From assembly GCF_937770335.1 (NCBI RefSeq), contig NZ_CALJHY010000002.1:62001-126000 (forward strand): a stretch of DNA of 64,000 bases, in the 5' to 3' direction. The stretch is from an uncultured Glaciecola sp. (GTDB lineage Bacteria > Pseudomonadota > Gammaproteobacteria > Enterobacterales > Alteromonadaceae). The notes beneath the pieces are model-generated. The model made no database searches, was not told the origin of the DNA, and saw only the letters and a program-made list of their open reading frames with translations. Shown here piece after piece: positions 12,185 to 20,700 of the stretch (position 1 is the stretch's first letter; each line of letters opens with the position of its first letter). The position numbers were made by a program, and so were the translations under genes.

Positions 12185-13219
12185 ATGAGTAAAATTACTG
12201 ACGATCCAAGAATAGACCCGCGTATCAAAGCTATTTTTGGCCAAGTAACCATGGCTGGTGGGCGTAATGTAGAAAGTAGAGAAGCCGCACTTGAAGCAGC
12301 TAATAGTGACAAGGCGATTGCTGTTAGGCAGAAGGTAGGTGCATTTCTTGAACTCTGCGATACTGAAGAGATCGCGCCTTCTGAAGGTTTAGTTATTACC
12401 AACAAGACGTTTACCTCCGAACCCGATGGTAACACGATAAATATTCAATTTATTCGTCCAGATAATAGTGATATTTTGCCCTGTGTTTATTATATTCATG
12501 GTGGTGGTATGACTACAATGTCTTGCTATGATGGCAACTATAAAGCGTGGGGCCGAATAATGGCAGCGCAAGGCGTTGCTGTCGCTATGGTAGATTTTCG
12601 AAACGCCTTAGTACCCTCATCCGTACCTGAAGTTGCGCCTTACCCCGCTGGACTGAATGATTGCGTATCAGGTTTGAAGTGGATTAGCGCCAACAGCGAT
12701 CTTCTTTCTATCGATAGCTCAAAAATCATCGTCTCTGGTGATAGTGGTGGCGGCAATTTAGCGCTCGCAACGGGTTTACGCTTGAAACAAGATGGTGACT
12801 CCGGCCTTATCGCAGGCATTTATGCGCTTTGCCCCTATATTGCAGGACAATGGCCGACAGCTGAAAACCCGTCTTCGACCGAGAATAATGGTATTTTGCT
12901 TGACCTGCATAACAACCAAGGGGTAATGATTTATGGCATACAAGAGTTTACCAAGCGCAATCCATTGGCGTGGCCGGGGTTTGCGACTGAAGATGATGTG
13001 CGCGGTCTAGTTCCAACGGTTATCAGCGTTAATGAGTGCGATCCGCTCCGTGACGAAGGGATCAATTTTTATAGGCTGCTGATGCAGGCAGGCGTTAATG
13101 CAAGGTGTCGGCAAGTAATGGGTACAATACATGCAATTGAGGTTTTTCCAATCGCTTGCCCTGATATTAGCCGCGAGACAGCCTCTAGTATCGCGCATTT
13201 TTGCTTCAGTATGCAGTGA
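12185..13219 (+). CDS. Alpha/beta hydrolase, hormone-sensitive-lipase (family IV) esterase
   Basis: Carboxylesterase fold enzyme. The oxyanion motif HGGG is at 105-108, the nucleophile Ser187 lies in GDSGGGN, and the triad is completed by Asp286 (NECDPLRD) and His316 (GTIHAIEV). The N-terminal 60 residues form the cap typical of the HSL family. The length of 344 is normal. The substrate is unknown; short-chain acyl esters are usual for the family. The start at 12185 overlaps a short upstream ATG that stops at once; only a weak purine stretch precedes it. No signal peptide is seen, so the enzyme is cytoplasmic. Confidence 0.88.
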   Translation: MSKITDDPRIDPRIKAIFGQVTMAGGRNVESREAALEAANSDKAIAVRQKVGAFLELCDTEEIAPSEGLVITNKTFTSEPDGNTINIQFIRPDNSDILPCVYYIHGGGMTTMSCYDGNYKAWGRIMAAQGVAVAMVDFRNALVPSSVPEVAPYPAGLNDCVSGLKWISANSDLLSIDSSKIIVSGDSGGGNLALATGLRLKQDGDSGLIAGIYALCPYIAGQWPTAENPSSTENNGILLDLHNNQGVMIYGIQEFTKRNPLAWPGFATEDDVRGLVPTVISVNECDPLRDEGINFYRLLMQAGVNARCRQVMGTIHAIEVFPIACPDISRETASSIAHFCFSMQ

Positions 13220-15013: not shown

Positions 15014-15418
15014 TATTGCGCCTCGATGTAGTCAGCTGAACTGACGTGAGTCAAACTCCAGCCCAACCCACCTTACTGCGTAACTAGCTTGCTTGTTCAA
15101 TAAACCTCCAAATATCTATAATATTGCCTTAACCAACATGGTTCTAATGCCTTTAATTATGCGCTAGTTATCAGTCAATATAGGCCAAATAGGCACTATT
15201 TACAGTGAGTCAAAATTAGATTTAAATATCACTTCTTATTTTCTGTATCCTATTATTTAACGGCGGTCGGTAACTAATTTTACTTGATATTATTTTGAAT
15301 AATGCAAACGATCGTTGACTTCAAAAAGGATCAACCGCAAGATATGAGACAGCGTTTAAAGCGAGGTTCTAAGGTCGCGTTAGTGAGCGTTATGTTCATT
15401 CTACAATTTGAGGGAAAT
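15014..15418. other. Non-coding gap before the CDGSH gene
   Basis: About 400 A+T-rich bases. The frame of the CDGSH protein stays open back to an ATG at 15302, but those 39 codons have no family resemblance and no binding site. I see no hairpin, repeat or RNA gene here. Confidence 0.4.
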
Positions 15419-15661
15419 ATGATGACGAAGGCAATCCGAGCATCCGATACACCATACGCCGTAGAGGTAGAATCTGGTAAAAATTACTTTTGGTGTTCCT
15501 GTGGTAAAAGTGGGAAACAACCTTTTTGTGACGGTTCTCATGGTGGCACAGGCTTGACACCGGTGAAGTACACAGCAACAGAATCCAAGACAATGTTTTT
15601 TTGTGGTTGTAAGTCGACAGCATCTCAACCTATGTGTGATGGTAGTCATAAGCAGCCATAA
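15419..15661 (+). CDS. CDGSH-type iron-sulfur protein with two CDGSH motifs
   Basis: Small [2Fe-2S] protein of the mitoNEET-related family. Two complete ligand sets are visible: CSCGKSGKQPFCDGSH and CGCKSTASQPMCDGSH, each with three cysteines and one histidine. This double-motif, roughly 80-residue form is the bacterial type. Two adjacent ATGs (15419 and 15422) follow GAGGGA at a good distance. The role in bacteria is poorly defined; redox sensing or iron-sulfur transfer is inferred from eukaryotic relatives. Confidence 0.88.
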   Translation: MMTKAIRASDTPYAVEVESGKNYFWCSCGKSGKQPFCDGSHGGTGLTPVKYTATESKTMFFCGCKSTASQPMCDGSHKQP

Positions 15662-16310: not shown

Positions 16311-17126
16311 ATGCAATTGAATACTAAACGATTGGTGAATATCGCGTTATTTGAGCTAGTAAGATTGTTTTTAACTAAAACAGGCTTACTTGCTGTTGCT
16401 GTCTTTTCAATTTGTTGGTTGCTAGTGCTGCGCTATGGCATTGCCGAAGCAGTAAACCTATTAAGCTCTCCTGATTTTTCGCAATTTATTGATTACATAT
16501 TTGGTGCTGCTGGTTTAAGTAAATTATTGACTTGGCCCGAGGCTGAGTTAGCTATTTATTGGCTAATTGCAGTGTATAGTTTTCCTATCTTTTGTTTATT
16601 TCTTTGCACAGACCAAACTGTTGGTGATAGGCAACGCGGCACTCTTCGATTTTTATCGTTACGTGCAACCCGGATGGAGATCATTTTAGGGCGATTTATT
16701 GGGCAAGTCTTCATTTTAATTACCCTGCTATTAATTACCTTACTGGCAACTCTTGCCATGCTAGCCTACCGCGAGCCATCTTTGTTTCTTCCCGGTTTAT
16801 TGCGCAGTTTTTTATTCCTTGGGTATTTAATTATTGCAGTGATGCCCTTTATTGCTCTCATGAGCTTTATAAATACTTTTGCACGCTCTGCACGCTTAGC
16901 CTTTGTAGTGGCTATTTTGTTTTTTGCTGGGGGCAATATTATCATTGGGTTGTTGACATGGCAGCTGCCAGCACTCGCTATTTTAAACTATATTTTTCCT
17001 GGTTATCAATTAGCTGATTTGGCAGCTCAAAATGCTGGCTTGATGCTAAGTATAGGCGTACCCCTGATACAAACAATGGTATTACTGATTTTTGCTGAGC
17101 GAGTGTTTGCAAGGAGTTCATTATGA
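16311..17126 (+). CDS. ABC-2 type transporter permease
   Basis: Polytopic membrane protein with about six hydrophobic segments (for example LLAVAVFSICWLLVLRYGI, WLIAVYSFPIFCLFLC, VFILITLLLITLLATLAML and a C-terminal IGVPLIQTMVLLIFA). The layout and the DRQRGTLRFLSLRATRMEIILGR-like cytoplasmic loop, where a TLRFL segment precedes the third helix, are those of ABC-2 permeases such as NosY and related exporters. The stop codon overlaps the ATPase start (ATGA), so the two are translationally coupled. The transported substrate is unknown. Confidence 0.85.
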   Translation: MQLNTKRLVNIALFELVRLFLTKTGLLAVAVFSICWLLVLRYGIAEAVNLLSSPDFSQFIDYIFGAAGLSKLLTWPEAELAIYWLIAVYSFPIFCLFLCTDQTVGDRQRGTLRFLSLRATRMEIILGRFIGQVFILITLLLITLLATLAMLAYREPSLFLPGLLRSFLFLGYLIIAVMPFIALMSFINTFARSARLAFVVAILFFAGGNIIIGLLTWQLPALAILNYIFPGYQLADLAAQNAGLMLSIGVPLIQTMVLLIFAERVFARSSL

Positions 17127-18028
17127 GCTCGTTGATAAAAGCGTCTGGAGTGACTAAGCAGTTTGGTTCTAAACTTGCGCTTGATAGTGTGACTTTCGAG
17201 ATAAATAAAGGTCCCCCCGTTGCACTTGTCGGGCCAAACGGTGCAGGAAAAACCACGTTATTTAGTCTAATGTGCGGATACATTTTTCCGAGTTCCGGTG
17301 ACTTGACGCTCATGGGTAAACGACCAGGTAATGCGCATTTATTTGGTAAACTAACGGCTTTACCACAAGATGCTCAACTAGATCCTCGCTTTAGTATAAT
17401 TCATCAACTGACGTTTTATGGTCAGTTGCAAGGACTCAGCAAGGTACAAGCAAAAAAAGAGAGTGCTAGAGTGCTTGAACTGGTCGGCATGGGGGATGCG
17501 GCAAATCAGCGACCGAAGGATTTATCTCACGGTATGCGCAAACGTGTGACTATTTCTCAAGCGTTGATTGGTCAGCCTCAAATTGTGATGCTTGATGAGG
17601 CTACTGCCGGGCTTGACCCTGTGCATGCTCGTGAAGTGAGAGAGTTGATTAGTGCACTGAGTAATGAAACTACATTTATTTTGAGTTCTCACGATTTGAG
17701 CGAACTTGAACGTTTGTGTGGCCAAGTGCTTCATCTTGATAACGGCAAGTTGACGGAACATAGCGCATTAAGCCAAAGCACAAATAACCAGGGCTTCGTC
17801 ACTTTACGATTGTCTCAACAATACGATGATGCTGAAAAAGTGTTTTCTAGTTTACCATCAGTGCGTCATGTTCATAAAAGTCAGGCAAAAGAGTATGTAA
17901 TTGAATATGAAAAGTCAGACGAGGCTTTCGACATTCAATTGCTTCAATGCTGCCATTTACAAGGTTGGCATTATCAACAATTGATTAATGGCCACACACT
18001 AGAAAACCAGATTTTTCATAAAGGATAA
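17123..18028 (+). CDS. ABC-2 type transporter ATPase
   Basis: Nucleotide-binding partner of the upstream permease. Walker A GPNGAGKTT at 37-45, an unusual but acceptable signature LSHGM at 134-138, Walker B VMLDEA ending at residue 160 and the switch His in SSHDLSE are intact. About 80 residues after the core form a C-terminal extension common in CcmA/NosF-like subunits. It overlaps the permease by four bases and lies 56-62 bases before the PRMT-like methyltransferase on the same strand, so the three may be one transcript. Confidence 0.9.
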   Translation: MSSLIKASGVTKQFGSKLALDSVTFEINKGPPVALVGPNGAGKTTLFSLMCGYIFPSSGDLTLMGKRPGNAHLFGKLTALPQDAQLDPRFSIIHQLTFYGQLQGLSKVQAKKESARVLELVGMGDAANQRPKDLSHGMRKRVTISQALIGQPQIVMLDEATAGLDPVHAREVRELISALSNETTFILSSHDLSELERLCGQVLHLDNGKLTEHSALSQSTNNQGFVTLRLSQQYDDAEKVFSSLPSVRHVHKSQAKEYVIEYEKSDEAFDIQLLQCCHLQGWHYQQLINGHTLENQIFHKG

Positions 18029-18083
18029 TAAGTACCTGGTTAATCAGCAGCCTGTTAGAATATGGCATAAATAAATACATGAG

Positions 18084-19124
18084 ATGGTTATGAGTAAGAC
18101 TAATGACGGCAACAACAGCGTTGACATAAGCGCAAATGAAACGGACGGTAGTGCAGGGCGTCACCGTATGTCTTATCGCGATGTAGCCATGCACAAGGTC
18201 ATGCTTCAGGATCTTGTTCGTACCGAGGCGTACGAAAAAGCCATAAATGCAGTAGTCAAACCAGAACATAGCGTCCTCGATTTTGGATGCGGTAGCGGTG
18301 TATTGTCCATGTTTGCTGCGCGCGCTAAAGCAGGTAAAGTGATTGCAGTCGATCGTTCGCCTTTTATCAAGAACGCACAAGAAATTGCTCTCGTTAACGG
18401 CTTTGAGAATATTGATTTTTATCATGATGATCATGAGTCGCTTCAGTTAGACGAAAAAGTGGATGTTATTGTGTCGGAGTGGATGGGGCACTGCCTGTTT
18501 TACGAGGCTATGTTGGAGCCGCTGTTGACAGTCAGGGATCGCTATCTGGCTAAGGGAGGAACAATGATCCCCGCTCAACTGAGCCTGCACGTGGGACTGG
18601 TTGTTGATGAAGATGTATTGGAGGATTTGTGTTTTTTACAAGAGCTTCCTTACGGTCTTGATTTTTCTCCCATAGCGCACGTACCATTTCAGCAATCTGA
18701 TTTGGTCGCACTTAGCCCTGATAGTTTGTTGGATAGTGTCGCTGATTTAGGTGAGCTAGACATGCTTACTATTACTAAAACAGAGACACCAAGAGTATTT
18801 ACGGCAAAGCTAATACCCAGCGAAAAAACCGACATATTTGCTCTGTGTGGCTGGTTCAGTGCGCAGCTTAGCCCCGGTGTCCAATTTGGCACTGGCCCAA
18901 ACGATATACCTACGCATTGGGATCAAATCTTGTTCCCTTTACCTCAACCCTTCAGTGTTGATCCCGCTCGTGAGTTGACCATTACCTTATCACCTCAGAC
19001 AGAACAAGTAGGGAAAGAACAATTCTGGTGTTGGTCTATTTCAGACAGCGAGAACAGTCTAACGGTTAACGAACAGCAACTGCAGCAACAAGCCATTGTT
19101 GATGTGGCACAGGGTAAATTGTAG
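18084..19124 (+). CDS. Protein arginine methyltransferase (PRMT) homologue
   Basis: SAM-dependent methyltransferase with the full set of PRMT-specific motifs, not just the general fold. These are the N-terminal helix YRDVAMHKVMLQDLVRT (31-47), SAM loop VLDFGCGSGVLS (64-75), the acidic end AVD at 88-90, the double-E loop SEWMGHCLFYEAML with Glu132 and Glu141, and the THW loop at 277-279. In eukaryotic PRMTs the two glutamates hold the substrate guanidinium. The C-terminal beta-barrel is present, giving 346 residues as in PRMT1. Start 18084 or 18090. It is most likely an arginine methyltransferase, but the substrate protein is unknown. Confidence 0.85.
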   Translation: MVMSKTNDGNNSVDISANETDGSAGRHRMSYRDVAMHKVMLQDLVRTEAYEKAINAVVKPEHSVLDFGCGSGVLSMFAARAKAGKVIAVDRSPFIKNAQEIALVNGFENIDFYHDDHESLQLDEKVDVIVSEWMGHCLFYEAMLEPLLTVRDRYLAKGGTMIPAQLSLHVGLVVDEDVLEDLCFLQELPYGLDFSPIAHVPFQQSDLVALSPDSLLDSVADLGELDMLTITKTETPRVFTAKLIPSEKTDIFALCGWFSAQLSPGVQFGTGPNDIPTHWDQILFPLPQPFSVDPARELTITLSPQTEQVGKEQFWCWSISDSENSLTVNEQQLQQQAIVDVAQGKL

Positions 19125-19400: not shown

Positions 19401-20432
19401 CTACCTAAGCAGTAAAGTAAAATATTCGACTATTTCTTCATCACTTATTGCCTGATGATCTGCACCAACCTGTATTTCAATCATGTGTTTATGTGTAGTA
19501 GGAAATGTTGAAAATTGACTAAAAAGTTGCAGATCCATTTTTTGATTCAGGTGCTTGGCTTTCTTAGCAAGTTCGCCAAGATCACCTTCGAGGAAAACAA
19601 GAAAGCCATTTGTTTGCGGGGCGTTAACCTCTAATTGAGGAAAGCGGGTGAGCAGCCTGGCAACTTGTGTTGCGCGAGTCAGAAATTCAGGTATCTGTTT
19701 GAGGCGGTTATCTAAACCGTCTAAAGCGCCGATGACCATAGGAAATGACGTAAAAGCATTACCACCTAATCGACTCCGCCACACTTTACATGCGTCTATA
19801 AAGTCAGTCTCACCGGCTAAAATAGCCCCGCCCATCGCGCCAAGTCCTTTGTACATAGACACATACACTGAATCAAATAATTCACTAATATCTGCTACCG
19901 ATTTTTGATAAGCACAAGCTGATTCCCATAAGCGAGCGCCATCCATGTGAAAATGAACTTGCTCAGACTTACACCAATAACTCATTGTTTCTAATTGCTT
20001 CCATGGAGTTAGTTTAAAACCCGCACGACGAATTGGTAGCTCAATAGAAACAGTCGCAAATTTTTCTTCTATTGCTTGAATATCGTTGATATCAAAAGGA
20101 CTATCGCAAGCCCCGATAGGAATACCATTTAATCCCATGAGAGTTTGATAAGCGTCATATTCATCTACAACCATGTGCGACATAGAATGCAGCACAACAT
20201 TGGTATCGTTGCGCTGCTCGGCGGATACTTTCAGAGCGCACAGTTGAGCAATTGTGCCTTTTGGGAAAAACAAACTTGCTGGTTTGTTTAGAAGTGTAGC
20301 AACTCGCTTTTCAAGCTCGACGACTCTGCCTTGCTGGTTGTAAATATCGATCGGGCCATCAATATAATTAGATGTTTGTAATCGAGTCAACCACTCTTTT
20401 TGTGAGTAGATTGGCATACCAAGTCTTCTCAT
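19401..20432 (-). CDS. Low-specificity threonine aldolase / beta-eliminating lyase-like PLP enzyme
   Basis: PLP enzyme of the threonine aldolase family (glycine and acetaldehyde from threonine, in the standard reaction). Visible marks are PASLFFPKGT near the start, HMDGARLWE with the PLP aspartate, and the Schiff-base lysine in VSMYKGLGAMGG. The start is ATG 20432, preceded by AGGAG at five bases; an upstream TTG (20477) is open but has no site. At 343 residues it is full length. It stands alone on the minus strand. Confidence 0.82.
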   Translation of the reverse strand: MRRLGMPIYSQKEWLTRLQTSNYIDGPIDIYNQQGRVVELEKRVATLLNKPASLFFPKGTIAQLCALKVSAEQRNDTNVVLHSMSHMVVDEYDAYQTLMGLNGIPIGACDSPFDINDIQAIEEKFATVSIELPIRRAGFKLTPWKQLETMSYWCKSEQVHFHMDGARLWESACAYQKSVADISELFDSVYVSMYKGLGAMGGAILAGETDFIDACKVWRSRLGGNAFTSFPMVIGALDGLDNRLKQIPEFLTRATQVARLLTRFPQLEVNAPQTNGFLVFLEGDLGELAKKAKHLNQKMDLQLFSQFSTFPTTHKHMIEIQVGADHQAISDEEIVEYFTLLLR

Positions 20433-20700
20433 TTCTTCTCCTAATGAGCATATAATTAACAGCAGTCTTTTGTTCAAAAATAATGTGAATGCCTTTGGTA
20501 TTCACATCACATTATCTCTCTTTACGAATATAAAGTCGTCGCCGTTTTAGTAGGCTAAAATGATCATGCCACTACAAACAAACCCTGCTTGAAATAGTTA
20601 AGTATAAAAATGTATCAGAAAAGCGCATACATAAGATAATAGTTTCAGGCTATAATTGAAAACAGAGCAATATCAGCATTGATAGATTGAGAACGTATAT

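What the first reader, a model, noticed from the sequence alone, without database searches (positions are those of the whole stretch)
18084..19124. Bacterial protein arginine methyltransferase with all PRMT-specific motifs
Seen: the N-terminal YRDVAMHKVMLQDLVRT helix, the double-E loop SEWMGHCLFYEAML (Glu132, Glu141), and the THW loop at 277-279 together with the C-terminal barrel. Known: these are the marks of type I/II arginine methyltransferases, a mainly eukaryotic family whose two glutamates hold the substrate arginine. Inference: a genuine protein arginine methyltransferase in a marine bacterium, with an unknown target. Most pipelines would label it only as a class I methyltransferase.
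Basis: partly seen in the sequence, partly recalled or inferred. Interest (0 to 1): 0.75.

Follow-up and report, generated by a model that had tools for sequence, protein, structure and literature searches.

The report
Bacterial PRMT-family arginine methyltransferase gene
A bacterium, apparently of the genus Glaciecola, carries an intact and selectively maintained gene of the arginine-methylating PRMT family best known from eukaryotes; it belongs to a bacterial branch of that family, and what it methylates is not known.

Summary
Window 18084-19124 (+) encodes an intact 346-aa protein with full PRMT architecture: N-terminal helix, SAM fold, SEWMG double-E loop (E132, E141), barrel and THW loop. 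Of the 60 best PDB sequence matches shown (67 found), 59 are named arginine methyltransferases (best 1.7e-42); the AlphaFold model (pLDDT 86.6) matches PRMTs best. Seventeen of 21 inspected active-site positions equal rat PRMT1. 'All motifs' is overstated: of YFxxY only the last Tyr remains. PrmA is ruled out. The gene is in 5 of 13 genus genomes, under purifying selection, as its own transcription unit. Relatives at 67-73% occur in Halieaceae and other Gammaproteobacteria, more distant ones in Myxococcota. A 70-row tree places it in a bacterial clade and speaks against a eukaryotic origin. Most likely it methylates arginine in a cellular protein. A lead: all five carriers have a second DEAD-box helicase with an RG-containing tail, and in one Haliea contig the PRMT gene directly follows a G/R-rich-tailed helicase gene; shared ancestry could explain the first. 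Free arginine (as for SznE) remains a serious rival. Bacterial PRMTs are already reported (Rv1988; predicted in Legionella), so this is a new member of a known kind.

The parts
18084..19124 (+). PRMT-family methyltransferase gene, 346 aa (possible true start at 18090, M3)
18048..18061 (+). Conserved upstream element CAGCCTGTTAGAAT (reads like an extended -10, TGTTAGAAT; my reading), part of a block of about 50-60 bp before the start that is homologous in the five Glaciecola genomes; one occurrence in the own genome
   Evidence: the generic sigma-70 scan did not flag it
18174..18224 (+). N-terminal helix, residues 31-47 (Y31, H37, M40, R46 = Y39, H45, M48, R54 of rat PRMT1); YF of YFxxY replaced by H27 R28 just upstream
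   Evidence: helices 34-42 and 44-57 in the model
18273..18299 (+). SAM-binding motif I, VLDFGCGSG (residues 64-72; D66 = D76 of PRMT1)
18474..18515 (+). Double-E loop SEWMGHCLFYEAML (residues 131-144; E132 and E141 = E144 and E153 of PRMT1)
18582..19001 (+). PRMT C-terminal barrel / oligomerisation subdomain (Pfam PRMT_C, residues 167-306)
   Evidence: 8.9e-12; 20 of 20 A3 members
18912..18920 (+). THW loop (residues 277-279; H278 = H293 of PRMT1)
19101..19121 (+). C-terminal tail; the protein ends exactly in GKL in 10 of the 12 rows of the gammaproteobacterial clade

Best explanation
The gene encodes a cytosolic SAM-dependent arginine (guanidino-nitrogen) methyltransferase of the PRMT family, type-I-like by its active-site residues. 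By analogy with PRMT1 (roles recalled), E132 and E141 hold the substrate guanidinium, H278 of the THW loop with Y31, M40 and M143 shapes the pocket, and a methyl group passes from SAM to a terminal guanidino nitrogen, giving mono- and probably asymmetric dimethylarginine. The barrel would form the usual dimer. The most likely substrate is arginine in a cellular protein; the best lead is the RG-containing tail of a DEAD-box RNA helicase. Shown: family, predicted fold, active-site residues, purifying selection, own conserved upstream element. Inferred: activity, product type, dimer, protein substrate, helicase lead.
For: PDB sequence search: 59 of the 60 shown (67 found) are named arginine methyltransferases, best 1.7e-42; a profile of 20 members reaches 3.8e-82 (PRMT8) and 2e-80 (yeast HMT1) over most of its length. 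PRMT_C in 20 of 20 members. Model pLDDT 86.6, pTM 0.81; the 50 Foldseek matches shown (of 1027 at E<=0.001) are PRMTs, best PRMT3, E 2.0e-31, TM 0.78/0.86. 17 of 21 inspected positions equal rat PRMT1; the four that differ are Y35->H27, F36->R28, E100->D90 (D also in yeast HMT1) and Y148->H136. The two Glu are Glu in 70 of 70 rows. Purifying selection. Helicase lead: in L033 (Haliea) the PRMT ORF starts 160 bp after a DEAD-box helicase gene on the same strand, whose product ends in a G/R-rich tail; L037 (Haliea) has its homologue (83-84%) about 3 kb upstream. At E<=1e-120 a second helicase with an RG/GR-containing tail is in 5 of 5 PRMT carriers; of 8 non-carriers one has a second copy, without RG/GR. 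Over all 18 helicase copies, RG/GR in the tail: 9 of 10 in carriers, 0 of 8 in non-carriers.
Against: No activity or protein substrate is shown. The helicase lead is confounded: the five second copies are one branch and the carriers' first copies also group together, so the count is close to one evolutionary event; the Fisher value of 0.0004 ignores this. RG-rich helicase tails also occur in bacteria without PRMT (recalled). The YF of YFxxY is kept in 1 of 20 rows of the clade. A CGN-coded RGGRGG stretch is absent from the own genome; of 13 genus genomes one has it, and that one lacks the gene. A known bacterial relative acts on free arginine. Presence in 5 of 13 genus genomes shows the function is dispensable at genus level.
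Confidence: 0.63

Rival explanations
1. It methylates free L-arginine or another small guanidino compound, like SznE of the streptozotocin pathway, and makes a methylarginine-type metabolite.
For: SznE/StzE is described as an arginine-guanidino methyltransferase whose product, N-omega-methyl-L-arginine, is the substrate of SznF (PMC11705231, passage); a gene 31% identical to SznE marked the saskemycin cluster (PMC12637814, passages). Three of five cyanobacterial loci placed with the eukaryotes have an L-arginine:glycine amidinotransferase gene directly upstream of the homologue. The altered YFxxY shows a changed pocket entrance.
Against: In the window the seven neighbours scanned include no guanidino-metabolite enzyme, though one lyase has a weak, below-cut-off match to the guanitoxin aldolase family; the neighbours in the other four Glaciecola genomes were not annotated. 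No amidinotransferase homologue in 13 of 13 genus genomes (no positive control). The cyanobacterial rows beside an amidinotransferase branch with eukaryotes, not with this clade. SznE itself could not be compared.
Confidence: 0.27
2. It is PrmA (ribosomal protein L11 methyltransferase) or a generic class I methyltransferase.
For: PrmA is nominally the best Pfam hit (2.4e-13 against 8.9e-12 for PRMT_C).
Against: The PrmA match covers only residues 52-136, the shared SAM fold; NCBIfam prmA scores 38.4 bits against a cut-off of 183. No PrmA among the 60 PDB sequences or 50 folds shown. Barrel, double-E and THW are present.
Confidence: 0.02
3. It was acquired from a eukaryote.
For: 34-35% identity to yeast HMT1, zebrafish PRMT2 and rat PRMT3, as high as or higher than to the seven other PRMT-like proteins found in its class sample (26-34%).
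Against: In the 70-row tree it is nested among 12 gammaproteobacterial rows (100/99) in a 20-row bacterial clade (98/99); the six eukaryotes are one group elsewhere (87/72). Holding the clade with PRMT2, or with all six eukaryotes, is disfavoured (p-AU 0.023 and 0.009; both groupings were named after the tree was seen, and no protist PRMTs were included).
Confidence: 0.04
4. It is a catalytically dead relative with a scaffolding role.
For: YF of YFxxY is lost.
Against: E132, E141, R46, D66 and H278 are invariant in the 20 aligned members.
Confidence: 0.04

Closest known systems
Eukaryotic type I PRMTs (PRMT1/yeast HMT1, PRMT3, PRMT8, PRMT2)
   Same: Near full-length homology, predicted fold, SEWMG double-E loop, THW loop, M48/M155 equivalents, PRMT_C barrel
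   Different: 31-35% identity to the six eukaryotic rows compared; YF of YFxxY is HR, Y148 equivalent is His136; short conserved C-terminal tail; separate bacterial clade
Reported bacterial PRMTs: Rv1988 (M. tuberculosis, secreted, histone H3R42) and two predicted PRMTs of Legionella pneumophila Paris
   Same: Bacterial proteins described as arginine methyltransferases (PMC10117894, passages)
   Different: Rv1988 acts on host chromatin; the Legionella ones are predicted, target unknown. No host role is suggested here. Sequences not compared
SznE/StzE and the SznE-like saskemycin gene
   Same: Bacterial arginine-guanidino methyltransferases (passages); that SznE is a PRMT homologue is recalled
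   Different: They lie in biosynthetic clusters. Sequences not compared
Cyanobacterial PRMT homologues beside arginine:glycine amidinotransferase (L071, L075, L078)
   Same: SEWMG, double-E, Y39 and M48 equivalents
   Different: They keep YF of YFxxY, have NHW instead of THW, and branch elsewhere
Other gammaproteobacterial PRMT-like proteins (the ten extra rows)
   Same: Both Glu of the double-E in 10 of 10
   Different: SEWMG in 0 of 10, Y39 equivalent in 0 of 10; 26-37% identity
PrmA (L11 methyltransferase)
   Same: Class I SAM fold
   Different: No match outside the SAM core; far under the equivalog cut-off

Membership tests
PRMT family (type I-like) | Near full-length sequence homology to PRMTs, better than to other methyltransferases | tested here: met
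   59 of 60 shown PDB sequences named arginine methyltransferases, best 1.7e-42; profile 3.8e-82
PRMT family (type I-like) | Double-E loop with two substrate-holding glutamates | tested here: met
   E132, E141; Glu in 70 of 70 rows
PRMT family (type I-like) | THW loop | tested here: met
   T277 H278 W279
PRMT family (type I-like) | YFxxY motif in the N-terminal helix | tested here: inconclusive
   only the last Tyr (Y31) is kept; Y35/F36 are H27/R28, and 1 of 20 clade rows keeps YF. The full motif is not met; whether its first two residues define the family is doubtful, since many homologous rows vary there. It weakens the claim of a standard type I enzyme
PRMT family (type I-like) | C-terminal barrel and overall PRMT fold | tested here: met
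   PRMT_C 45.7 bits, cut-off 27; the 50 Foldseek matches shown are PRMTs
PRMT family (type I-like) | Type I residues (M48 and M155 of PRMT1) | tested here: met
   M40 and M143; that these mark type I is recalled
PRMT family (type I-like) | Methylation of arginine in proteins (MMA/ADMA) | not testable with these tools
   needs enzyme assay or mass spectrometry
PRMT family (type I-like) | Homodimer | not tested
   only the monomer was modelled
SznE-type free-arginine methyltransferase | Gene in a biosynthetic cluster with guanidino-metabolite genes | tested here: inconclusive
   none among seven window neighbours scanned; no amidinotransferase homologue in 13 of 13 genomes, without positive control; neighbours in the other genomes not annotated
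SznE-type free-arginine methyltransferase | Sequence close to SznE | not tested
   SznE sequence not available here
PrmA (L11 methyltransferase) | Equivalog score over the cut-off | tested here: not met
   38.4 bits against 183.15

The most novel reading that the evidence does not exclude
Glaciecola, Halieaceae and Myxococcota share an old lineage of true protein arginine methyltransferases that puts eukaryote-style (asymmetric) methylation on an endogenous bacterial RNA-binding protein, with the RG-containing tail of a DEAD-box helicase as the target, a bacterial parallel of PRMT1 and its RGG substrates; and eukaryotic type I PRMTs arose from within this bacterial radiation (nearest: cyanobacterial and Aminicenantes-type enzymes).
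Probability: 0.2. Interest if true: 0.75.

Novelty: new member of a known kind. Interest (0 to 1): 0.45.

Why it matters
Arginine methylation by PRMTs is studied mostly in eukaryotes, and the one bacterial enzyme with PRMT activity named in the review passages I saw is aimed at host histones. A conserved PRMT-family enzyme with no sign of a host role, in a bacterium that can be compared with relatives lacking it, makes it testable what arginine methylation does inside a bacterial cell, and bacterial clades of this kind bear on where eukaryotic PRMTs came from. If the substrate is free arginine, it would instead extend the small set of known bacterial methylarginine makers.

Tried and rejected
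PrmA/generic methyltransferase: rejected, since only the SAM core is shared.

Mobile single-gene cassette: DNA homology limited to about 50-60 bp upstream plus the ORF, in four kinds of neighbourhood (G003 and G007 share theirs), first suggested a mobile unit. But the ABC-transporter pair next to the gene in the window also sits elsewhere in the other four carriers, so gene order is simply poorly kept; special mobility is not shown.

Patchy transfer within the genus: on recA the five carriers are not one group (two changes, 0% of 200 bootstrap trees with one; the MAG G011 falls apart from the other four, which group at 97/99). On a DEAD-box helicase tree G011 groups with the other carriers, so a misplaced recA contig in the MAG is likely. 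One descent is favoured, not proven.

Defence system: PADLOC gives mad2 at 3.5e-18 over residues 55-162 only, and mad3 for the ABC ATPase; taken as shared core domains.

Tandem-RGG target: no CGNGGNGGNCGNGGNGGN match in the own genome (AGR codons and single RGG not covered).

Creatine-type pathway: no amidinotransferase homologue in 13 of 13 genomes (the tool warns that an empty answer without a positive control shows nothing).

Viral, phage and plasmid homes: none in viral contigs (one protein as query, so close relatives only) or phages (E<=1e-8); one plasmid record (Rhizobium, 31.6%, E<=1e-15).

Literature: listings (and 20 of 6,967) showed no paper titled on this clade; most listed papers were not opened, and one opened later (passages) does report bacterial PRMTs. 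So I claim no absence from print beyond this: no paper in the library holds both 'Glaciecola' and 'arginine methyltransferase'.

One search showed this was wrong (shared neighbours in pairs of loci, among them the helicase with the G/R-rich tail); followed it up. I moved the protein-substrate odds from 0.60 to 0.63 and the small-molecule odds from 0.30 to 0.27 for that reason.

Full report
What is there. The ORF at 18084-19124 (+) is intact, 346 aa. phmmer against PDB chains returns 67 sequences at E<=0.001; 60 are shown, 59 named arginine methyltransferases and one 'MGC151858 protein'; the best is PRMT2 (5g02/5fub, zebrafish) at 1.7e-42 over residues 30-323 (species). A profile of 20 members (the window protein and 19 of the 55 loci; alignment A3) reaches 3.8e-82 for PRMT8 and 2e-80 for yeast HMT1. 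Pfam PRMT_C is above its cut-off (45.7 against 27 bits) and found in 20 of 20 members. Against the reading: Pfam's nominally best family is PrmA (2.4e-13), but it covers residues 52-136 only, and NCBIfam prmA gives 38.4 bits against 183. None of the 25 NCBIfam families shown (of 49) reaches its cut-off, so such a pipeline would probably give a generic name (inference).

Active site. At 21 positions inspected, 17 equal rat PRMT1, among them Y39, H45, M48, R54, D76, E129, E144, E153, M155 and H293 (here Y31, H37, M40, R46, D66, E118, E132, E141, M143, H278). Four differ: Y35, F36, E100 and Y148 are H27, R28, D90 and H136. The roles of these positions are recalled. One of 20 rows of this clade keeps both Y35 and F36. 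Ten of the 12 gammaproteobacterial rows end exactly in GKL.

Fold. AlphaFold2 with A3: pLDDT 86.6, pTM 0.81, residues 1-27 below 50. Foldseek against the PDB: 1027 matches at E<=0.001; the 50 shown are PRMTs, led by PRMT3 (E 2.0e-31, TM 0.78/0.86). The dimer was not modelled.

Host and distribution. Contig lengths and places of the genus genomes G003, G007 and G011 agree with records titled Glaciecola, so the host is taken to be Glaciecola (GTDB sense). The gene is in 5 of 13 genus genomes, 85-88% identical in the other four; one also has a partial, decayed copy. Wider samples: 8 of 246 family genomes at 1e-10 (4 of the genus, 4 distant at 26-37%), 4 of 295 order genomes at 1e-15 (3 of the genus), 8 of 369 class genomes at 1e-15 (own plus 7 distant at 26-34%). 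dN/dS is 0.03-0.10 in 10 ortholog pairs, with dS above 1 in 9 of them.

Context. DNA similarity between the window and the other four carriers starts 49-59 bp before the ATG and ends at the stop codon. The upstream block holds CAGCCTGTTAGAAT, once in the genome, which I read as part of its own promoter; the generic scan did not flag it. Neighbourhoods are of four kinds in the five genomes, and the ABC pair beside the gene is likewise unlinked elsewhere. Partial exceptions: an alpha/beta-hydrolase-type gene (window 12185-13219; my reading of its sequence) lies about 5 kb upstream here and 1.5-3.7 kb downstream in G007 and G003; L036 and L038 share several genes, and L033 and L037 share a DEAD-box helicase.

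Helicase lead. In L033 (Haliea) the PRMT ORF begins 160 bp after the helicase gene, same strand; the helicase (Pfam DEAD 1.2e-53) ends in a G/R-rich tail; in L037 its homologue lies about 3 kb upstream. In the genus, at E<=1e-120, helicase homologues number two in each of the 5 carriers (10 copies) and 8 copies in 7 of 8 non-carriers. Tails with at least one RG or GR: 9 of 10 copies in carriers, 0 of 8 in non-carriers; the second copies of the carriers have 4-5 each. The five second copies form one branch and the carriers' first copies group together, so this may be one event. It is a lead, not proof.

Origin. The genome-contig scan used patterns from the SEWM and THW stretches and is biased to that type; it gave 55 loci, all with bacterial titles. 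The tree used 70 rows: the window, 53 of the 55 loci (two fragments dropped), ten PRMT-like rows (L027 left out; it resembles L026 closely), and six eukaryotic PRMTs. The window gene groups with Glaciecola (4 rows, 100/100; the G002 orthologue was not included), then Halieaceae and other Gammaproteobacteria (12 rows, 100/99), then Chromatiales, Myxococcota and others (20 rows, 98/99). Eukaryotes form one group (87/72), with cyanobacteria (91/84) and then Aminicenantes-type rows (98/95). Forcing the 20-row clade together with PRMT2, or with all six eukaryotes, is disfavoured (p-AU 0.023 and 0.009), but the groupings were chosen after seeing the tree. Long branches are present and the outgroup is not cleanly separated (2 rows on the wrong side), so the deep order is uncertain.

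Substrate. SznE/StzE is reported to supply N-omega-methyl-L-arginine to SznF (PMC11705231, passage) and a SznE-like gene marks the saskemycin cluster (PMC12637814, passages). In three cyanobacterial loci (L071, L075, L078; of the five that branch beside the eukaryotes) the homologue follows a gene close to L-arginine:glycine amidinotransferase (L071: 1.8e-122; the other two 93% and 87% identical to it). No such homologue was found in 13 of 13 genus genomes, without positive control. A CGN-coded RGGRGG stretch is absent from the own genome. On the other side, a review names Rv1988 as a bacterial arginine methyltransferase acting on host histone H3R42, and two predicted PRMTs in L. pneumophila Paris (PMC10117894, passages), so bacterial enzymes called PRMT are not new. 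I give a protein substrate 0.63 and a small molecule 0.27.

Verdict. A real, maintained bacterial PRMT-family enzyme, type-I-like by residues but without YF of YFxxY, in a bacterial branch of the family; activity and substrate are unproven. New member of a known kind.

Noticed in passing
L071:6776-9062, L075:6645-9053, L078:1317-3689: Cyanobacterial SEWMG-type PRMT homologues directly downstream of an L-arginine:glycine amidinotransferase gene: a candidate two-gene guanidino-metabolite (possibly creatine-like) pathway with a PRMT-fold methyltransferase.
   Followed up: partly
L033:6503-9017; L037:744-6193; L125-L129: DEAD-box helicase with G/R-rich tail beside (L033) or near (L037) the PRMT gene; second helicase copies with RG-containing tails in all five Glaciecola carriers.
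   Followed up: partly
L016:13459-13756 (G007): A partial, decayed second copy of the PRMT gene (58% identity over residues 227-346, two stops) in one Glaciecola genome.
   Followed up: partly
window 12185-13219 (+): Alpha/beta-hydrolase-type protein (my reading of the sequence) whose homologues (83%) lie within 4 kb of the PRMT gene in G003 and G007, but on its other side.
   Followed up: no
window 19401-20477 (-): Beta-eliminating-lyase protein; best NCBIfam hit is the GntG (guanitoxin) family, far below its cut-off (98.7 against 230 bits). At E<=1e-60 a homologue is in 1 other of 13 genus genomes, unlinked to the PRMT gene.
   Followed up: partly
window 16311-18028 (+): ABC-2 permease and ATPase pair just upstream; at E<=1e-60 the ATPase is in 6 of 13 genus genomes, the five PRMT carriers (73-80% in the other four) and G006 (52%), but unlinked to the PRMT gene in the other four carriers.
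   Followed up: partly
L077:1142-2962, L079:7986-9749, L080:7911-9752: Aminicenantes/Acidobacteriota PRMT homologues with long C-terminal extensions (587-613 aa in all); in L079 no Pfam family was found beyond the methyltransferase and PRMT_C parts.
   Followed up: no
NZ_CP104042.1:464039-464887: Rhizobium plasmid record in which the PRMT-like match (31.6%) lies in a gene annotated as tetratricopeptide repeat protein.
   Followed up: no
window 15302-15661 (+): Small protein with two CDGSH stretches (Pfam zf-CDGSH 2.4e-17) upstream of an FKBP-type isomerase gene.
   Followed up: no
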